DNA from: Pedobacter arcticus A12
GTDB lineage: Bacteria > Bacteroidota > Bacteroidia > Sphingobacteriales > Sphingobacteriaceae
DNA length: 64,000 bases
Assembly: GCF_000302595.1 (NCBI RefSeq)
Contig: NZ_JH947125.1
Location: 766,299 to 830,298 of the forward strand
Reading direction: 5' to 3'
In this document: one piece after another, positions 32,038 through 38,602 of the stretch
Layout of the letters: each line of letters opens with the position of its first letter
Numbering within the stretch: the stretch's first letter is position 1
Notes under the pieces: model-generated
Databases searched by the model: none
Told to the model about the DNA's origin: nothing
What the model saw: the letters and a program-made list of their open reading frames with translations, nothing else
Translations under genes and position numbers: made by a program

Positions 32038-32361
32038 ATGAAATGGTTTACAATCCCACTCTCATCTTTAAGCAGTGCAGATGTGCAACTAATAGTAGTC
32101 AATAGTAAAAAACTGACGTTGGTGCAACACCAAGGAAATTATCATGTTTTTGCTAATAAATGTCCTCACGCTGGTGGCGATTTAACGAATGGCTGGTGCA
32201 CAGAAGGATTTTTAGTTTGTCCTATCCATAGATATCAATATAATTTAGAAAACGGGAGAGGGGCAATTGGTCAGGGAGACTATCTGAGAAAATATCCAGT
32301 TAAAATAGTTGGAGAAAATTTGATGGTTGGTTTTAAAAAGCTGTGGTTTAAGTTTTGGTAA
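32038..32361 (+). CDS. Rieske [2Fe-2S] ferredoxin-like protein
   Basis: The 107-residue soluble protein has both Rieske cluster loops: NKCPHAGGDL (CxH) and LVCPIHRYQYN (CxxH). The spacing and lack of a membrane anchor match stand-alone Rieske ferredoxins that pass electrons to oxygenases or reductases. It is four bases after the YdeI-like gene and about 100 bases before the Rrf2 operon. Whether it serves the oxidase cluster is not shown by the sequence. Confidence 0.87.
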   Translation: MKWFTIPLSSLSSADVQLIVVNSKKLTLVQHQGNYHVFANKCPHAGGDLTNGWCTEGFLVCPIHRYQYNLENGRGAIGQGDYLRKYPVKIVGENLMVGFKKLWFKFW

Positions 32362-32440
32362 TTCCCCAATGAACTGGTAATATTTATAATTCAGTTGATA
32401 ATGTTGCGCTTTAAATAAAAGACAAAAAACTCTTTTATTA

Positions 32441-32472
32441 TTGATGGTAGTCCATTATATTTGTACCATCAA
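32441..32472 (+). promoter_or_regulatory. Rrf2 operator overlapping its own promoter
   Basis: TTGATGGTA (32441-32449) and TACCATCAA (32464-32472) are perfect 9-bp arms around a 14-base spacer. The -7 box TATATTTG (32456-32463) lies inside the spacer and the ATG begins at the next base, 32473. A bound Rrf2 dimer would cover the promoter and start site, implying direct autorepression of the whole operon. Confidence 0.75.
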
Positions 32473-32910
32473 ATGGGGATTTTTTCAAAAACTTGCGAGT
32501 ACGCTATCAGATCTGTTTTTTTTATTGCACATCGTACAGAAAACGGCAGTAGGGTTGGTATTAAAGAAATTGCTACGGGGATTAGTTCTCCAGAACATTT
32601 TTTAGCTAAAATTTTACAGGATTTAAGTAAAAAAGGAATTGTAAAGTCTGTTAAAGGTCCGCATGGCGGTTTTTATATGGATGAAAGTACTTTACAAAGA
32701 CCTTTAGCAGATGTGGTTGAGGCAATTGATGGAAACGGCCTTTTTACCGGTTGTGGCTTAGGTCTGGTTTCTTGTTCAGAAAGCAAACCCTGTCCGCTGC
32801 ATAACGAATTTAAAGTAATCAGAAAAAACATCCATGAAATGCTACTTAAAACAACTATTAAAGAGTTCAATGGCGATTTAAATTTGGGTGTAACAAATTT
32901 GAAAAAGTAA
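32473..32910 (+). CDS. Rrf2-family regulator, NsrR/IscR-like
   Basis: The 145-residue winged-helix protein starts MGIFSKTCEYAIRSVFFIAH. The DNA-binding helices are VGIKEIATGISSPEHFLAKILQDL and the wing is GPHGGFYM. Three cysteines follow as CX6CX5C (TGCGLGLVSCSESKPCPLH), close to the cluster-binding pattern of IscR and NsrR, so an Fe-S cluster sensing NO, oxygen or redox state is likely. It heads the oxidase/globin operon and its own promoter carries a large inverted repeat. NsrR would fit the globin and hemerythrin neighbours best, but the ligand is inference. Confidence 0.85.
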   Translation: MGIFSKTCEYAIRSVFFIAHRTENGSRVGIKEIATGISSPEHFLAKILQDLSKKGIVKSVKGPHGGFYMDESTLQRPLADVVEAIDGNGLFTGCGLGLVSCSESKPCPLHNEFKVIRKNIHEMLLKTTIKEFNGDLNLGVTNLKK

Positions 32911-32959
32911 TCTTTAAAAACAATAAAGGATAAAAAGGTATTAATATCAATTAAGTAAT

Positions 32960-33292
32960 ATGTATTTACAAGTGATAGATTTATATATTTCGAGTCTGTG
33001 CCAAGTGTATTCAATAAAAGGCTTAGCATTTGTTTTAGCACTCCAAACGCAAGATTATCGTTTCTTAATCAATAGCCTATTGGTTATTGCTATTGTAGTG
33101 ATGATTCTGTTACTCGCTGTGATGGCGAAAAGTTTGAGGAACTTAAAAGAATCTTCCTTAAGCAGTAAAGAAAAAGGATCAGCGTGGATCAATCATAAAC
33201 TATATGACTTTGATGCTGAGCAATTAAAAATCTTAATTAAAAAAATCAATAAAGCAGACAAAAATGATCAACAGGTTGAAACCAAAAATTAG
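32960..33292 (+). CDS. Small membrane protein of the oxidase operon
   Basis: The 110-residue protein has one strong hydrophobic helix (FLINSLLVIAIVVMILLLAVMA) followed by a charged cytosolic tail with a long Lys-rich end. I do not recognise a family; it could be the operon's equivalent of a small oxidase subunit such as CcoQ or an assembly factor. Its 3' end overlaps the next gene by 29 bases, which implies translational coupling. It follows the Rrf2 gene by 49 bases. Confidence 0.55.
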   Translation: MYLQVIDLYISSLCQVYSIKGLAFVLALQTQDYRFLINSLLVIAIVVMILLLAVMAKSLRNLKESSLSSKEKGSAWINHKLYDFDAEQLKILIKKINKADKNDQQVETKN

Positions 33293-35096
33293 TAAACAAG
33301 GCAGTTTTGTGCTGATTTTTCTTTTGTTATCAAGTATCTGCGCTTTCGGGCAAGAGCAGAAAACGAAAGATATCATTACAAACCCCGGGGTGTTAATTAC
33401 TATAGTTTTGATATTAATTCCGCTTCTGATAGCTGTTTATTTAGCTACTGCGAAGGTGAGAAATCTGGTAAAGAAGGTAAAAGCACAGGATGTTAATGAA
33501 CAGAAAACTGCTATTTCACAAAGTTTGCGTGAGGATGAGCTGAAAACCCTAAGGCAGTCTCTAGAAAATAGAAAAACGGCAGTTGAGTATAAATTAACCA
33601 ATAAAGAACTGGGTGGAGATTTACCTCCAGAGGATGCGAAGGGTATGATCCATCGGGTAAGCGAAGTAAATATTGCTCGTTTTATTCCTGATAAAAAGCG
33701 ATCTACCAAAAGACCATCAGTAAACCCCGAATTAGCTAAATTAATCATCTGGTATTTGGGCGGCGCCGCGTTCTGGTTGGTTTTAGGGACTTCCATTGGT
33801 GAGTATTTAGGGATAAAATTTGTAGCACCAGATGTTGATCATATCAGTTGGTTAAGTTTTGGTAGGTTACGCCCGGTGCATACCAATATGGTTTTCTGGG
33901 GCTGGTGTTCTTTAGCGATGATTGGCTTGGGTTATTACGTGGTTTATACGGTTAGTAATACCATAGTTAAATCGCTAAAAAGTGCTTGGTTAGCTTTCTG
34001 GCTCATCAATGCGTCCGTAATGCTGGGCTCCCTGTCTTTAATGGCAGGAATCAACAATGGTGGTGGCGAATATCGCGAGTATATCTGGCCAATCATGTTG
34101 CTTTTTGCAATTGGCGTGGTTATCACTTTAATAAATTATTTGAACATCATCGCTAAAAGAGCTACAAAAGAAATTTATGTTTCCAACTGGTACATTGTAT
34201 CGGCTGTAATATTTACCATCGTAATTACTTTGGTTGCTTACTTGCCTTTTTGGCAAAATGGCTTGGGAGAAACCATTGCGCAGGGTTATTATATGCACCA
34301 AGGCGTAGGAATGTGGTTTATGCTTTTTGTGTTAGGCTTAGTTTATTATTTCCTTCCGCAACAGCTTAACACGCCAATCTATTCTTACAGTTTAGGAATT
34401 TTAGCTTTTTGGACGCAGATTTTGTTTTACACGGTAATTGGAACGCACCATTTTATTTTTAGTGCAATTCCTTGGTGGTTGCAAACTACTGCAATTGTGG
34501 GTAGTGTGGGTATGTTAATTCCAGTAGCGGCCGGTACCACCAACTTTTTGATGACCATGCGTGGTAACTTTCATAAAGTGGGCTCAAGTTATACCTTGCC
34601 GTTTTATTTAGTAGGTATTGTTTTCTATTTTACTGGTTCTTACCAAGGAACAGCCGAAGCATTTAGATCTGCCAATTTATACTGGCACTTTACAGATTTT
34701 ACCGTGGCACACTCGCATTTGACCATGTATGGGATCATTACATTTTTTCTTTGGGCATTTATCTATACGTTGGTGCCTAGGTTAACTGGTAAAGAACCAA
34801 CCCATGGTTTGGTTGGTGCGCATTTTTGGATGGCCTTAATTGGGATGATGTTTTATACCGTTCCGTTAATGATCGGTAGTACGTTGCGTGGTGTAGAATG
34901 GATGGAAGGAAAACCATTTATTGATACAGTGGCTAACATGGCGCCTTACTGGGTGTGGAGAGCAATTGGTGGTTCTTTAATGTGGGCATCGCATTTGATT
35001 TTTGCTTATAACCTTTACACAATGACAAGGAAAAGTGGTGACATTGATACACAAACCGTACTTTTTAATCAGTTAAACCGAGAAGATAATATTTAG
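33264..35096 (+). CDS. cbb3-type heme-copper oxidase subunit I (CcoN-like) with N-terminal extension
   Basis: The 610-residue protein has a signal-like start (ending CAFGQ), a helix at about 41-62, a charged segment to about 150, and then a 12-helix heme-copper core. Ligands are visible: H206 (RLRPVHTN) and H485 for the low-spin heme, H483 (AHSH) for the active-site heme, and H345, H395 and H396 for CuB. Y389 lies six residues before the HH pair, the place of the cross-linked tyrosine in cbb3 oxidases. That tyrosine favours oxygen reduction; NO reductases lack it. The extension of about 150 residues is unlike standard CcoN. It could still reduce NO, as some cbb3 oxidases do. Confidence 0.87.
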   Translation: MINRLKPKISKQGSFVLIFLLLSSICAFGQEQKTKDIITNPGVLITIVLILIPLLIAVYLATAKVRNLVKKVKAQDVNEQKTAISQSLREDELKTLRQSLENRKTAVEYKLTNKELGGDLPPEDAKGMIHRVSEVNIARFIPDKKRSTKRPSVNPELAKLIIWYLGGAAFWLVLGTSIGEYLGIKFVAPDVDHISWLSFGRLRPVHTNMVFWGWCSLAMIGLGYYVVYTVSNTIVKSLKSAWLAFWLINASVMLGSLSLMAGINNGGGEYREYIWPIMLLFAIGVVITLINYLNIIAKRATKEIYVSNWYIVSAVIFTIVITLVAYLPFWQNGLGETIAQGYYMHQGVGMWFMLFVLGLVYYFLPQQLNTPIYSYSLGILAFWTQILFYTVIGTHHFIFSAIPWWLQTTAIVGSVGMLIPVAAGTTNFLMTMRGNFHKVGSSYTLPFYLVGIVFYFTGSYQGTAEAFRSANLYWHFTDFTVAHSHLTMYGIITFFLWAFIYTLVPRLTGKEPTHGLVGAHFWMALIGMMFYTVPLMIGSTLRGVEWMEGKPFIDTVANMAPYWVWRAIGGSLMWASHLIFAYNLYTMTRKSGDIDTQTVLFNQLNREDNI

Positions 35097-35102
35097 ATTA
35101 AG

Positions 35103-36110
35103 ATGGAAATTTACAATAATCATAAACGCTTATTTATTGTTGCAACGGTTATGTTTCTTGCATTAACATTGTATGCAGCATTAATTCCAGCATATAGGGC
35201 GCAAGAGGATAATGCGCCATTACCCAATAGCAAGCCATTAACAGAACAAGAACTCGCTGGTAAAGCAGTTTACGTGAAAGAAGGATGTATAGCTTGCCAT
35301 ACACAACAGGTGCGTAACGTAGATATGGATAAAGTTTGGGGAGAACGCCCAAGTATCGCATCCGATTATGCAAGAAATAAGAGAACAGATTTTTGGCGTA
35401 ACACTGCAAATCTGTTAGGGTCTGAGCGTACTGGACCGGATTTGACCGAAATTGGAAAACGTCAGCCTAGTAAAGAGTGGAATTTAATCCACCTTTTCAA
35501 TCCGCGTTCGGTAGTTGGGCAATCGGTTATGCCAGCTTACCCATGGCTTTTTGAAATTAAGGAAAGTGCAGCTGCTGCAGATGTAATTGTTCAAGTTCCG
35601 GAAGAATATAGAAAAGGAATCACGGGCGATATTGTGGCTACAGAAGATGCTTTAAATTTAGTGGCTTACCTACAATCTTTAAAGCAGGTAAGTTTGCCTG
35701 ATGGTAGACCAGTGCCCAAGTTCTTATATCCGAAAGAAGCAACACCAGCTTTGGCGGGCATGCCAGCAGCGGAAAGTGGAGGACTTGACGGAGCAAGTCT
35801 GTATGCTGCAAACTGTCAAAGCTGTCACCAAGCAAACGGAGAAGGTTTGCCAGGTGCTTTTCCTTCTCTTAAAGGAAGTAGTATTGTTTTAGATCCAGAC
35901 CCAACAGCACTGATTACGGTAATTATGAAAGGGTATAATGGAAGAGCGAAGGAAGGTTTTCCAGAAATGCCGGCAATTGGTACAAACAATAATTTGAAAC
36001 CAGAAGAAATTTCTGCAATCATCAGTCACGAGCGTACCAGTTGGGGTAATGATGCAAAAAAGGTTTCAGTAGAAGAGGTAAAGGCAATTTTAGATCAAAT
36101 AGGGAAATAA
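35103..36110 (+). CDS. Fused CcoO/CcoP-like two-heme cytochrome c subunit
   Basis: The 335-residue protein is anchored by one N-terminal helix (about 10-30). The first cytochrome domain carries C62-X2-C65-H66 in GCIACHTQQVR, the CcoO signature, with M143 (SVMPAYPW) as the likely axial ligand. The second domain carries C238-X2-C241-H242 with M289 (PEMPAIG), resembling one CcoP heme domain. Standard cbb3 oxidases use separate CcoO (one heme) and CcoP (two hemes), so this is a reduced fusion. It starts six bases after the CcoN-like gene and ends in TAATG, shared with the next start. Confidence 0.87.
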   Translation: MEIYNNHKRLFIVATVMFLALTLYAALIPAYRAQEDNAPLPNSKPLTEQELAGKAVYVKEGCIACHTQQVRNVDMDKVWGERPSIASDYARNKRTDFWRNTANLLGSERTGPDLTEIGKRQPSKEWNLIHLFNPRSVVGQSVMPAYPWLFEIKESAAAADVIVQVPEEYRKGITGDIVATEDALNLVAYLQSLKQVSLPDGRPVPKFLYPKEATPALAGMPAAESGGLDGASLYAANCQSCHQANGEGLPGAFPSLKGSSIVLDPDPTALITVIMKGYNGRAKEGFPEMPAIGTNNNLKPEEISAIISHERTSWGNDAKKVSVEEVKAILDQIGK

Positions 36111-36400
36111 TGATTATGACTCAACTAAAAAAATATAAAAGTTTTTTACTGACTGTTTTGCTGATGGTTACGGCCAGTCTTACAACGTTTGCTTGTGAGG
36201 TTTGTAATAAAAACCAGCCAAAAATTTTAAGAAACATTACTCACGGAAGTGGACCACAAAGTAACTGGGATTATTTTGTGGTAATTGCAATGGTGCTTAT
36301 TGCTGTTTATACTTTATACGCAACAATCCGCTGCTTTTTAAGCCGCAAAACGGAGAGCAAATATAACGACATCAAAAACACAATTTTAACACCACAATAA
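36110..36400 (+). CDS. Small membrane protein with CxxC motif
   Basis: The 96-residue protein has a signal-like first helix (about 10-28) ending TTFACEVCNKNQP, a CxxC just after the likely export boundary, and a second helix at about 52-70. The CxxC could bind a metal or take part in heme or copper delivery to the oxidase; this is inference. The start ATG shares its A with the stop of the previous gene; a second ATG two codons on is possible. It is also coupled one base to the next gene. Confidence 0.6.
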   Translation: MIMTQLKKYKSFLLTVLLMVTASLTTFACEVCNKNQPKILRNITHGSGPQSNWDYFVVIAMVLIAVYTLYATIRCFLSRKTESKYNDIKNTILTPQ

Positions 36401-36810
36401 TGAAAAGTAAAAGCGAAGTAACTTTATTTATTGACGATGAATTACAGCCAGTAGGGGTTTTTCCGACGCCAGTTTCTTTTGATTTGGATACTACAAAATT
36501 ACCCGACGGCCAGCATATTCTTAAAATTGTTAGTAAAGACCATAAAGGTAAAGAAGGTATTAAAAAAATTCCTTTTGTTGTTAGAAACGGACCAGCAATA
36601 GCTATTGAGGGCTTAAAGAAAGATGAAGTTGTTGATGGTATTGTACCATTAATGATTAACTCGTACGGTAAAGGAGATCAAACTTCGTTTGTATTACATG
36701 GTAGTGAAACACCACGCAGTATCCCAATCTGGATTATTATTCTTTTGATATTGTTTGTCGGCTGGGCAGCGTTTTTTACAATCACATCTGATTCAATCTC
36801 GTTATTTTAA
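36400..36810 (+). CDS. Ig-like domain protein with C-terminal membrane helix
   Basis: The 136-residue protein has a beta-rich N-terminal domain (VTLFIDDELQPVGVFP, LPDGQHILKIVSKDHKGKEG) that looks like a bacterial Ig-like fold, then a C-terminal membrane helix (SIPIWIIILLILFVGWAAFF). There is no signal peptide, so orientation is uncertain. I do not recognise a named family. FixH/CcoH, a cbb3 assembly protein, has a different layout. The gene overlaps its neighbour by one base and precedes the globins, so it is an operon-specific accessory protein. Confidence 0.6.
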   Translation: MKSKSEVTLFIDDELQPVGVFPTPVSFDLDTTKLPDGQHILKIVSKDHKGKEGIKKIPFVVRNGPAIAIEGLKKDEVVDGIVPLMINSYGKGDQTSFVLHGSETPRSIPIWIIILLILFVGWAAFFTITSDSISLF

Positions 36811-36830
36811 CGAGCTTTAAAATTTGCAGT

Positions 36831-37214
36831 ATGAAAGATATTGAGGGATTGGAAGAGATAAAGGTTTTTGTAGACGATTTCTACCAGAAGGTTAGAGAAG
36901 ACGATTTTATAGGGCCTATTTTTATGAATGCCATTACCGACTGGGGGCCACATTTAGAACAGATGTATAAGTTCTGGAATGCCGCTTTGTTCGGGGTTCC
37001 GGGCTTTAGAGGAAATCCTTTCGCCAAACATGCGCCATTAGGTATTATACCTGCTCATTTTGATAGATGGCTGGTGCTTTTTGATGAAACTATAGATAGC
37101 AAATTTGAAGGTATAATGGCAGACGATGCTAAAAACAGGGCGCAGTTAATGGCAACCATGTTTATGAAAAGATTAGCAACCTTAGGCGGAGATGATAAGA
37201 AAGTAATCTATTGA
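36831..37214 (+). CDS. Truncated hemoglobin, group III-like
   Basis: The 127-residue globin shows the B-helix FYQKVREDDFIGPIF, the E-helix WGPHLEQMYKFW and the proximal histidine in PAHFDRWLVLF, the pattern of group III truncated hemoglobins (YjbI/GlbO relatives). Such globins bind O2 and NO and can detoxify NO when a reductant is present. It lies 20 bases after the Ig-like gene and two bases before a second, divergent globin gene. Confidence 0.9.
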   Translation: MKDIEGLEEIKVFVDDFYQKVREDDFIGPIFMNAITDWGPHLEQMYKFWNAALFGVPGFRGNPFAKHAPLGIIPAHFDRWLVLFDETIDSKFEGIMADDAKNRAQLMATMFMKRLATLGGDDKKVIY

Positions 37215-37216
37215 GG

Positions 37217-37597
37217 ATGATGGACTCCGATAAGCAAGATATCGCTACAGTTGCCGATATTGAAAACCTGGTTTATAGTTTTTACGATAAAGTACGGGCA
37301 AACGAAAGTTTATTCGCTGTTTTTGATCCCATTATAAAAAATAATTGGCCCGCCCATTTAGCCAAAATGGTGAGTTTTTGGTCTACACTGCTTTTATATA
37401 CACGAGAGTACAAAAGCGATCCTTTAACAAGTCATATGCCTTTACCCTTAACTAAACAACACTTTGAAACATGGATGTTGTTATTTACAGAAACCTTAGA
37501 TGAATTGTTTAAAGGCGAAATAGCGGAAAATGCTAAAAAAAGAGCGTTTAGCATAGCCCGGATAATGAAAGCAGTGAAAAACATCGACGTGAAATAA
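37217..37597 (+). CDS. Second truncated hemoglobin, group III-like
   Basis: The 126-residue globin is a diverged paralogue of its neighbour. It keeps FYDKVRANESLFAVF, the E-helix WPAHLAKMVSFW and the proximal histidine in KQHFETWMLLF. I start at the ATG at 37217 (an adjacent ATG at 37220 is equally good); a TTG at 37211 would overlap the previous stop. Two tandem globins with different distal regions suggest distinct ligands or redox roles. This gene probably ends the long operon; 109 bases follow before the hemerythrin gene. Confidence 0.88.
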   Translation: MMDSDKQDIATVADIENLVYSFYDKVRANESLFAVFDPIIKNNWPAHLAKMVSFWSTLLLYTREYKSDPLTSHMPLPLTKQHFETWMLLFTETLDELFKGEIAENAKKRAFSIARIMKAVKNIDVK

Positions 37598-37706: not shown

Positions 37707-38180
37707 ATGGCAATTAAAAGTAATTCTTATATCGCAAGGCTTTCTCAAGACCATCATCTAGAGCATTCTTTTTGTAAAAGAATTGAAAAGGGAATCGAGC
37801 TAGATGTTTCTTTAGACCGCATCCGTAATTACGTTAGTTTTTTTTGGGAACAACATTTAAGAAAACATTTTTTAGAAGAAGAACAGCTTTTGTTTAAGAG
37901 TATAGATGATGTTTTTTGTACCAAAGGAAAAGAAGACCACATCTCCATAATTTCAGAAATCGAAAAAATTGTTTCGGGAAATAATGTAGGGAAGCATAAT
38001 TATCTTCATTTGGTGTCCTCAATTTACCAGCACATCAATTTCGAGGAAAGAGTTTTATTTCCACATTTAGAGCTTTTACTACCCGAAGAAGAACTCAAAA
38101 ATATTCAAGAACGTTTGTCGCAGTCACACTTAGATAGTTTTGAGGATGACTTTAGCGATGAATTTTGGCAGAGCAATTAA
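37707..38180 (+). CDS. Hemerythrin HHE-domain protein
   Basis: The 157-residue helical protein has the hemerythrin ligand pattern: DHHLEH near residues 15-20, the HLRKHFLEEE segment near 50-60 and HINFEERVLFPHLE near 110-123, supplying histidines and acids for a di-iron site. Such proteins (compare YtfE/Ric) sense oxygen or repair Fe-S clusters damaged by NO. The ferredoxin gene overlaps its last 23 bases, so the two are co-translated. Confidence 0.83.
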   Translation: MAIKSNSYIARLSQDHHLEHSFCKRIEKGIELDVSLDRIRNYVSFFWEQHLRKHFLEEEQLLFKSIDDVFCTKGKEDHISIISEIEKIVSGNNVGKHNYLHLVSSIYQHINFEERVLFPHLELLLPEEELKNIQERLSQSHLDSFEDDFSDEFWQSN

Positions 38181-38502
38181 TATCAGTTTGGATAATATCT
38201 CTTTTGAAATAATATACGACGGCGAACCTCACCAAATTACTACCCGTAACAATGAGTATGTAAATTTAATGATGTTGATTTATGATCGCTTTGCAGATGA
38301 AGAGTTTGGCGACTGCCGAGGAATGGGAAAATGTGGTACTTGTATGGTGGAGATATTAAACGCAAGAGAAAAGCTAGCGAGTTTCGACAGGAATGAAGCA
38401 ACAACATTAGCTAAAATGGATGTAAATCAGCAAAATATCAGACTATCCTGTCAACTGATGATTGATAAAAACCTAAACGGACTACAGATTAGAGTTTTGT
38501 GA
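38158..38502 (+). CDS. [2Fe-2S] ferredoxin
   Basis: The 114-residue protein has the plant/adrenodoxin-type cluster motif C-X5-C-X2-C (GDCRGMGKCGTCMVEI) and a fourth cysteine in RLSCQLM. It should carry electrons in the cytosol, perhaps to the hemerythrin, globins or Rieske protein. Starts at 38140 (TTG), 38146 (ATG) and 38158 (ATG) are possible; I choose 38158 because MNFGRAINISLDN leads naturally into the first beta strand. It overlaps the hemerythrin gene. Confidence 0.83.
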   Translation: MNFGRAINISLDNISFEIIYDGEPHQITTRNNEYVNLMMLIYDRFADEEFGDCRGMGKCGTCMVEILNAREKLASFDRNEATTLAKMDVNQQNIRLSCQLMIDKNLNGLQIRVL

Positions 38503-38553
38503 TTTTAACATATTGAGATCGATCTGTTGATGCTATAATTAGCTAAAAACAAA

Positions 38554-38581
38554 AAAGCCAATGTTGAAAAACATTGGCTTT
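38554..38581. terminator. Bidirectional terminator between the ferredoxin gene and gyrB
   Basis: AAAGCCAATGTT and AACATTGGCTTT form a perfect 12-bp stem around a GAAA loop. An A-run lies on the left and T residues on the right, serving both convergent genes. Confidence 0.85.
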
Positions 38582-38602
38582 CACTTTATACATTAAAATC
38601 GA

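What the first reader, a model, noticed from the sequence alone, without database searches (positions are those of the whole stretch)
32441..37597. Single Rrf2-controlled operon joining a divergent cbb3-type oxidase with two globins
Eight genes run the same way with gaps of 49 bases or less and several one-base overlaps: Rrf2, small membrane protein, CcoN-like, fused CcoO/CcoP-like, two unknown accessory membrane proteins and two group III truncated hemoglobins. Globins plus an NsrR-like sensor point to nitric oxide, while the oxidase active site points to oxygen. The combination suggests an undescribed respiratory module used when NO or low oxygen threatens the main oxidase. The gene order is seen; the role is inferred from known families.
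Basis: partly seen in the sequence, partly recalled or inferred. Interest (0 to 1): 0.75.

Follow-up and report, generated by a model that had tools for sequence, protein, structure and literature searches.

The report
NO-linked divergent cbb3-type oxidase operon
In many soil and water Bacteroidota, a distinct branch of the cbb3-type respiratory enzymes travels with nitric-oxide defence genes under its own local switch, so it is probably an alternative breathing enzyme for times when nitric oxide is present.

Summary
In detail: eight tightly packed genes, annotated correctly. Corrections: the operon probably runs on to 38502 (hemerythrin-like gene, 2Fe-2S ferredoxin); the small membrane protein matches the N-terminal module of the catalytic subunit, fused in many relatives; the Rrf2 protein looks Fe-S-type but is not demonstrably NsrR.

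New evidence. An operator, AATAAAAGA-N8-TCTTTTATT (32414-32439), is matched at 15 or more of 18 positions in 34 of 45 scored loci with Rrf2 upstream (window included) and without mismatch only here in the genome. The catalytic subunit forms its own clade beside canonical cbb3. It keeps every haem/CuB histidine and the active-site tyrosine, has near-fixed substitutions (S240G, H243A, L247Q, E323Q), and lacks NO-reductase glutamates. Both 'unknown accessory' proteins are constant partners; in distant relatives the second carries a cytochrome c domain. NO-defence genes lie within 6 kb in 61 of 80 loci, against 2 of 20 canonical cbb3 loci. The host has NirK and NosZ but no COX1-family NO reductase.

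Best reading: an NO-responsive alternative terminal reductase using O2 and probably NO. That it replaces NO reductase is suggestive inside the family and fails as a rule across the phylum. New variant of a known kind; no activity shown.

The parts
32414..32439 (.). Operator palindrome AATAAAAGA-N8-TCTTTTATT, predicted Rrf2 binding site
   Evidence: 0 mismatches only at this place in the whole genome; 2-mismatch hits at the level of the reversed control. Score 15+/18 in 34 of 45 loci with Rrf2 upstream (window included), 19 of them 18/18; 0.28% of 3,900 shuffles reach 15. The motif was taken from the same loci
32456..32463 (+). Bacteroidota-type -7 promoter element TATATTTG (consensus TAnnTTTG recalled)
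   Evidence: A TAnnTTTG-like box follows the operator at a similar distance in most high-scoring loci listed (by eye)
32473..32910 (+). Rrf2-family regulator with predicted Fe-S ligands C94, C101, C107, H110, and invariant C8
   Evidence: PF02082 85.1 bits; these residues invariant in 18 of 18 (where they are numbered one lower because the start Met was left out)
32960..33292 (+). Small membrane protein corresponding to the N-terminal module of longer CcoN
   Evidence: hhalign to the N-terminus of fused CcoN: probability 95.5, E 1.4e-8, 64 columns
33264..35096 (+). CcoN-like catalytic subunit, divergent C-family haem-copper oxidoreductase
   Evidence: PF00115 271.6 bits; modelled core 30% identity to 3mk7, TM 0.91; own clade; active-site residues
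35103..36110 (+). CcoO fused to a one-haem CcoP-like domain, two c haems
   Evidence: FixO 105.8 bits, Cytochrom_C 65 bits; CxxCH at 62 and 238
36110..36400 (+). Accessory protein A: signal/TM, CxxC..QP..HG motif, second TM
   Evidence: C29, C32, Q36, P37, H45 invariant in 23 of 23; profile match in 80 of 80 named loci
36400..36810 (+). Accessory protein B: beta domain plus C-terminal TM; constant partner
   Evidence: 23-row alignment; C-terminal cytochrome c fusion in distant relatives; model pLDDT 62
36831..37214 (+). Group III truncated haemoglobin 1
   Evidence: 2ig3 E 1.2e-16
37211..37597 (+). Truncated haemoglobin 2
   Evidence: PF01152 26.4 bits against cut-off 21
37707..38180 (+). Hemerythrin-like protein, probable member of the same unit
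   Evidence: PF01814 25.8 bits against cut-off 25.3; same-strand neighbour in 35 of 80 named loci
38155..38502 (+). 2Fe-2S ferredoxin-like protein, probable last gene of the unit
   Evidence: weak NCBIfam hits to nqrF and fdx, below cut-off; same-strand neighbour in 28 of 80
38553..38582 (.). Terminator-like hairpin between the ferredoxin and a convergent gene (gyrB by recall)
   Evidence: found in the - strand scan; not significant alone

Best explanation
A nitric-oxide-responsive alternative respiratory module. Rrf2, probably holding an Fe-S cluster, sits on the palindrome beside the promoter and keeps the operon off; NO (or another insult to the cluster) releases it. The enzyme is a distinct C-family haem-copper oxidoreductase made of CcoN (split in two genes here), CcoOP, and proteins A and B. 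It takes electrons through the CcoOP cytochrome c and reduces O2 at haem b3/CuB, and probably also NO, when NO would block the main oxidases. The group III globins and the hemerythrin-like protein bind or remove NO/O2 or repair iron centres nearby. Shown here: gene order, operator conservation, residues, clade, gene linkage. Inferred: repression, the NO signal, both substrates, altered proton coupling, and the roles of A and B.
For: NO-defence genes (truncated globin, hemerythrin-like, RIC/ScdA, Hmp) within 6 kb in 61 of 80 module loci against 2 of 20 canonical cbb3 loci, Fisher p 7e-8; in distant relatives 5 of 7 on the same strand (7 of 7 on either strand, with loose Hmp and ScdA matches). 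Predicted Fe-S ligands of Rrf2 invariant 18 of 18. Conserved operator, unique in the genome. O2-type centre: six His and Tyr389 invariant in 78 of 78 complete named CcoN; the NOR glutamate positions are G and M/T. Own clade, support 100/96. cbb3 enzymes are reported to reduce NO (stated in PMC8780969 and PMC12816887, passages read).
Against: No expression or activity data. NsrR membership is not met, so the signal could be iron, redox or O2. 19 of 80 loci have none of the four NO genes within 6 kb. Among the 45 scored loci with Rrf2 upstream, 11 do not reach 15 of 18 for the operator. Many Mucilaginibacter loci lack an upstream Rrf2 and have histidine-kinase or sigma-54 regulator genes nearby, so the signal may differ there. 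In two genomes (this one and Pelobium) the canonical cbb3 also has RIC-like and NnrS-like genes beside it.
Confidence: 0.47

Rival explanations
1. It is primarily an NO reductase: a tyrosine-retaining kind within the C family that closes the gap between NirK and NosZ in Bacteroidota without cNOR or qNOR.
For: The host has NirK and a nos cluster but only three COX1-family genes, none a NOR. In the family, NirK+ genomes without the module have a NOR in 10 of 10; those with it lack one in 6 of 11; Fisher p 0.012; one further genome, G695, undetermined. In 151 family genomes module and NirK co-occur in 7 (odds ratio 5.1, p 0.006), module and NosZ in 15 (odds ratio 4.1, p 0.002). The altered positions S240G/H243A could suit an enzyme without cytoplasmic proton uptake (inferred; channel assignment recalled).
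Against: Both published NOR motifs are absent (motifs in PMC3084760, passages; residues) and the tyrosine that NORs lack is invariant. Phylum-wide, at least 18 of 64 NirK+ genomes have neither a recognisable COX1-family NOR nor the module (classed by bit score and frame length). Five of 11 NirK+ module genomes in the family also have a NOR, and so does G523 outside it. 18 of 25 module genomes have no NirK above cut-off. NO reductases of other kinds (flavodiiron and the like) were not searched. The tests ignore phylogeny; 9 of 22 NirK+ family genomes are one genus.
Confidence: 0.28
2. It is a microaerobic or iron/redox-regulated O2 reductase; the globins supply O2 and NO is not the signal.
For: Complete O2-type active site; among specific regulator models Rrf2 scores best with SUF and IscR types, all below cut-off; the globin relative Ctb has been linked to O2 metabolism (recalled).
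Against: RIC/ScdA and Hmp neighbours, both over their NCBIfam cut-offs in the representatives tested, point to NO rather than O2; the genome already holds a canonical cbb3.
Confidence: 0.2
3. A canonical cbb3 paralogue that drifted, with NO genes nearby by chance.
For: The module is patchy, 25 of 151 family genomes.
Against: Substitutions fixed in 78 of 78, constant partners A and B, own clade, conserved operator.
Confidence: 0.05

Closest known systems
cbb3-type oxidase (C-family haem-copper oxidase, CcoNOQP)
   Same: CcoN fold (TM 0.91, 30% identity to 3mk7), haem/CuB ligands, helix-VII Tyr, CcoO domain
   Different: separate clade; S240G, H243A, L247Q, E323Q; one-haem P domain fused to O; proteins A and B; no match to ccoGHIS models among the operon's proteins; Rrf2 beside it
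cNOR / qNOR
   Same: superfamily, fold (TM 0.84 to 4xyd), NO-related neighbourhood
   Different: no NOR motifs, keeps the Tyr, distant in the tree
NsrR / IscR / RsrR type Rrf2 regulators
   Same: three Cys plus His, local palindrome (ligand spacing of the known ones recalled)
   Different: below every equivalog cut-off; operator unlike the E. coli motif gATGyAT-N5-ATrCATc quoted in PMC1274295 (passages)
Campylobacter Ctb (group III truncated haemoglobin)
   Same: 2ig3 is the best solved relative of globin 1
   Different: Ctb is not encoded beside an oxidase (recalled)
nirK-cbb3 region of SAR11 (PMC12816887)
   Same: the authors raise the possibility that a cbb3 reduces NO where NOR is absent (passages)
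   Different: canonical ccoNOQ-PGHIS operon preceded by crp-fnr; globins not mentioned in the text

Membership tests
C-family haem-copper oxidase (cbb3) | COX1 fold with low-spin haem, haem b3 and CuB histidines | tested here: met
   H206, H345, H395, H396, H483, H485 invariant in 78 of 78 complete named sequences
C-family haem-copper oxidase (cbb3) | helix-VII active-site tyrosine (Tyr-II) | tested here: met
   Y389 = Y251 of 3mk7, 23 of 23 and 7 of 7, 78 of 78; definition read in PMC3084760. The cross-link itself was not tested
C-family haem-copper oxidase (cbb3) | canonical residues at 240 and 243 (proton-channel assignment recalled) | tested here: not met
   S240 and H243 in 10 of 10 correctly read canonical sequences; G and A in 23 of 23 module, G and A/G in 7 of 7 distant sequences
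C-family haem-copper oxidase (cbb3) | three c haems in CcoO plus di-haem CcoP (recalled) | tested here: not met
   two CxxCH here; distant relatives have a third on protein B
C-family haem-copper oxidase (cbb3) | NCBIfam ccoN equivalog cut-off | tested here: not met
   250.9 bits against 583.15
C-family haem-copper oxidase (cbb3) | O2 reduction | not testable with these tools
   needs membranes or purified enzyme
NO reductase (cNOR/qNOR) | H-X-Arom-X-E | tested here: not met
   HQGVG in this protein; G349 in 78 of 78
NO reductase (cNOR/qNOR) | H-H-X-Arom-Arom-X17-E | tested here: not met
   HHF(I/V/L)F in alignment A3
NO reductase (cNOR/qNOR) | NO reduction | not testable with these tools
   activity not measured
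NsrR | equivalog score | tested here: not met
   29.9 against 182 bits
NsrR | three conserved Cys for an Fe-S cluster | tested here: met
   three Cys (positions 93, 100, 106 of alignment A5) in 18 of 18; a cluster was not shown
NsrR | NO sensing | not testable with these tools
   needs expression or spectroscopic work
Group III truncated haemoglobin (globin 1) | best match to 2ig3 with its conserved Tyr, distal His, Trp (position names recalled) | tested here: met
   2ig3 E 1.2e-16; residues aligned
RIC/YtfE/ScdA (37707-38180) | TIGR03652 cut-off | tested here: not met
   16.3 against 204.7 bits; only a hemerythrin domain just over cut-off

The most novel reading that the evidence does not exclude
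A C-family enzyme with two extra constant proteins that keeps the O2-reductase tyrosine but reduces NO as its main job, so that NOR status cannot be read from the known NOR genes in Bacteroidota: a new, tyrosine-bearing class of respiratory NO reductase, with proton uptake rerouted by the S240G/H243A/L247Q/E323Q set.
Probability: 0.25. Interest if true: 0.85.

Novelty: new variant of a known kind. Interest (0 to 1): 0.62.

Why it matters
Bacteroidota are abundant in soil and wastewater (recalled), and in the samples here many carry NirK without a recognised COX1-family NO reductase, so N2O budgets inferred from their genes may be incomplete. If this enzyme turns over NO, gene surveys miss a class of NO reductase; if it is an NO-tolerant oxidase, it shows how a cbb3 scaffold was adapted to respire under NO. 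The fixed substitutions near the active site also give a natural test of which residues separate O2 from NO chemistry and how protons enter C-family enzymes.

Tried and rejected
Rejected: NsrR by name (score far below cut-off). Rejected: cNOR/qNOR membership (motifs, tree). Rejected as a general rule: 'NirK genomes have either a NOR or this module'. It held for the first 16 family genomes (9 of 9 without the module have a NOR, 5 of 7 with it lack one), weakened with 6 more and fails phylum-wide (at least 18 of 64 have neither). Led nowhere: Foldseek of protein B (best E 0.099, low-confidence model); paper searches for the system and for proton-channel residues (none); the Rrf2 gene of Melioribacter (PMC3534657, passages) is tied there to a nos operon, not to an oxidase. 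The operator search for a wider regulon gave, besides this site, only hits at control level. Rows dropped or misread: one canonical row (L216) was read in the wrong frame and was re-read for the tree; three other COX1 proteins (L217, L218, L221) and one near-duplicate (L032) were left out of the tree. In one search, 3 of 81 loci were not scored. The 80 named loci are the best 80 of 339, found with protein B as query, so B in 80 of 80 is by construction and the set leans to close relatives; it overlaps the 20 family loci. The operator consensus was taken from the loci on which it was then scored, so the shuffles guard against composition, not against that choice.
Full report
THE OBSERVATION. 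Searches confirm eight same-strand genes with gaps 49, -29, 6, -1, -1, 20 and -4. Pfam gives Rrf2, COX1, FixO plus cytochrome c, and two truncated globins; the three other proteins have no family above cut-off. The Rrf2 start is most likely ATG 32473 (sequence). The unit probably continues with a hemerythrin-like gene and a 2Fe-2S ferredoxin (to 38502), which are frequent neighbours in relatives; a hairpin follows at 38553-38582.

HOST. In the CcoN tree the nearest row is L033, from genome G103; its contig C23 has the same length, 357,620, as the Pelobium manganitolerans record behind L058, so I take the host to be a close relative of Pelobium. The genome has three COX1-family genes: a caa3-like one (name by score class, not tested further), a canonical CcoNO-type one, and this one. 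It has NirK and NosZ in a nos cluster (names of the nos genes other than NosZ recalled). Its only two matches to the truncated-globin family are those of the operon. NO reductases outside the COX1 family were not searched.

CONSERVED MODULE. In 151 family genomes, 27 matched CcoN at 1e-60; 25 of them at 57-100% identity, the other two, canonical by score, at 32-33%. In the 20 family loci examined, CcoN, CcoOP, A and B were all present in the same order. In 80 named loci CcoN, CcoOP and A were found by profile beside B in 80 of 80 (CcoN is cut by the contig edge in two); named members include Mucilaginibacter, Pedobacter, Chitinophaga, Niastella, Chryseolinea, Pontibacter and Flavobacterium. 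In the phylum sample 16 of 395 genomes matched protein B at 1e-3, three of them weakly (E 3e-12 or worse).

SUBUNITS. The 110-aa protein corresponds to the N-terminus of the longer CcoN of relatives (hhalign probability 95.5); relatives with a fused form have CcoN of about 680-726 aa, and others (567-629 aa) lack that part. Protein A has invariant C29, C32, Q36, P37, H45 (23 of 23), a possible metal or disulphide site in the periplasm (inferred). Protein B has one predicted TM, at its C-terminus. In distant relatives protein B reads on into a CxxCH cytochrome c domain (seen in L151-L155, and in L147; L156 was cut from view). Because haem c is attached outside, the TM should run from inside to outside, so the beta domain should be cytoplasmic (inferred). 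This makes B look like a structural, CcoP-like subunit. In the two distant relatives whose A was read in full (L153, L155) it is shorter and lacks the CxxC.

ACTIVE SITE. The alignment to 3mk7 is ungapped around the key helices. In 23 module and 7 distant sequences the histidines at 60, 207, 257, 258, 345, 347 and Y223, Y237, Y251, Y317 are kept, while W203G, S240G, L247Q, T321S and E323Q are fixed in all 30; H243 is A in 29 and G in 1. In 80 named loci, 78 have a complete CcoN and all 78 agree at H206, H345, Y389, H395, H396, Y455, H483, H485, G378, A381, Q385 and Q461. E323Q is not unique: two other divergent C-family proteins, L219 and L220, share it. That S240 and H243 belong to the proton channel is recalled; no held paper was found for it. 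NOR motifs are absent (definitions in PMC3084760, passages).

TREE AND FOLD. 52 rows, IQ-TREE: module plus distant proteins form one clade (100/96), canonical cbb3 with P. stutzeri another (96/96), NORs a third (100/100). The tool warns of long branches, so the order of these clades is open. A model of the core (pLDDT 82; only 55-70 in parts of helices VI and VII, where the active site lies) fits cbb3 best (TM 0.91) and cNOR next (0.84); it therefore supports the fold, not the geometry of the active site.

REGULATION. A 26-base palindrome lies just upstream of the promoter (32414-32439). 78 of 81 loci were scored: with Rrf2 upstream, 34 of 45 reach 15 of 18 or more, 19 perfectly (window included); without, 8 of 33 reach 16. 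Of 3,900 shuffles 0.28% reach 15. In the host genome it is unique without mismatch. So Rrf2 is most likely a local, self-controlling switch (inferred). Its cysteines and histidine are invariant in 18 of 18. Loci without an upstream Rrf2, many of them Mucilaginibacter, often have kinase or sigma-54 type regulator genes nearby.

LINK TO NO. Profiles for truncated globin, hemerythrin-like, RIC/ScdA and Hmp were run on 6-frame translations; the RIC and Hmp representatives pass their NCBIfam cut-offs. Within 6 kb, either strand: 61 of 80 module loci, 14 of 20 family loci (overlapping set), 7 of 7 distant loci (5 of 7 on the same strand), 2 of 20 canonical cbb3 loci; p 7e-8 for 61 of 80 against 2 of 20. 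The two canonical exceptions are this genome and Pelobium. In distant loci the Hmp profile also hits lone reductase domains and some ScdA matches are weak, so 7 of 7 is loose. By taxon label, 32 of 43 groups have at least one such gene on the same strand. 'NnrS-like' is my label from recall: that protein has no Pfam or NCBIfam hit.

THE MISSING NO REDUCTASE. Family: 22 of 399 genomes have NirK above cut-off. Module absent: 10, all with a NOR. Module present: 11, of which 6 have no NOR (the host among them). One, G695, is undetermined. Fisher p 0.012. NORs were classed by bit score and frame length; five qNOR and four shorter NorB proteins examined have the NOR glutamates. The four added module genomes were checked for A, B, Tyr and Gln. 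Phylum: at least 18 of 64 NirK genomes have neither (G178, G307, G351, G531, G424, G180, G188, G403, G436, G499, G203, G308, G309, G288, G513, G321, G429, G270), so NirK without a COX1-family NOR is common and not explained by this module alone; G523, outside the family, has NirK, the module and a NOR-class protein. Module genomes of the family without NirK: 18 of 25, which suggests defence or oxidase use rather than denitrification alone.

VERDICT. The gene set is a real, widely conserved and apparently unnamed branch of C-family oxidoreductases, with its own Rrf2 switch and tied to NO defence. Retention of the tyrosine in all 78 complete sequences argues against a pure NO reductase and for an enzyme that still reduces O2. 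I therefore favour an NO-responsive alternative oxidase that may also consume NO, and keep the NO-reductase reading as the bold alternative. Papers: I read passages only of PMC3534657, PMC1274295, PMC12816887, PMC8780969 and PMC3084760; all else on the literature is from search listings or recall. Papers outside the open-licence library, including work on new NOR classes that I recall, were not seen, so 'unnamed' is limited to these searches.

Noticed in passing
window 32441-32449 and 32464-32472: A second perfect inverted repeat, TTGATGGTA / TACCATCAA, brackets the -7 box of the Rrf2 promoter; it is not evident in the relatives listed.
   Followed up: partly
L225:7244-12015 (own genome C1, about 912 kb): The host's canonical cbb3 gene has a divergent RIC/ScdA-like gene and an NnrS-like gene (label recalled) beside it, as in Pelobium (L222), but not in the 18 other canonical loci examined.
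   Followed up: partly
L043:2589-3923: In genome G055 a qNOR lies about 4-5 kb upstream of the module, so both kinds can sit close together.
   Followed up: no
L219, L220: A different divergent C-family oxidase (524-541 aa frames) in NirK+ genomes outside the class also carries Gln at the E323 position; on its own deep branch.
   Followed up: no
L063, L066, L069, L072, L077, L081, L082: These loci, mostly Mucilaginibacter, lack the upstream Rrf2 and instead have histidine kinase and, in some, sigma-54 regulator genes nearby; the switch of the module may have been swapped.
   Followed up: partly
G288:C10:160611-160967, G429:C40:166406-166762 and similar: Small (about 150 aa) weak COX1 matches lie near NirK in some phylum genomes without a recognised NOR; not identified.
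   Followed up: no
window 32038-32361: A Rieske ferredoxin, with the two genes before it, is found upstream of the module only in L033 (Pelobium) among the 20 family loci; probably not part of the module.
   Followed up: partly
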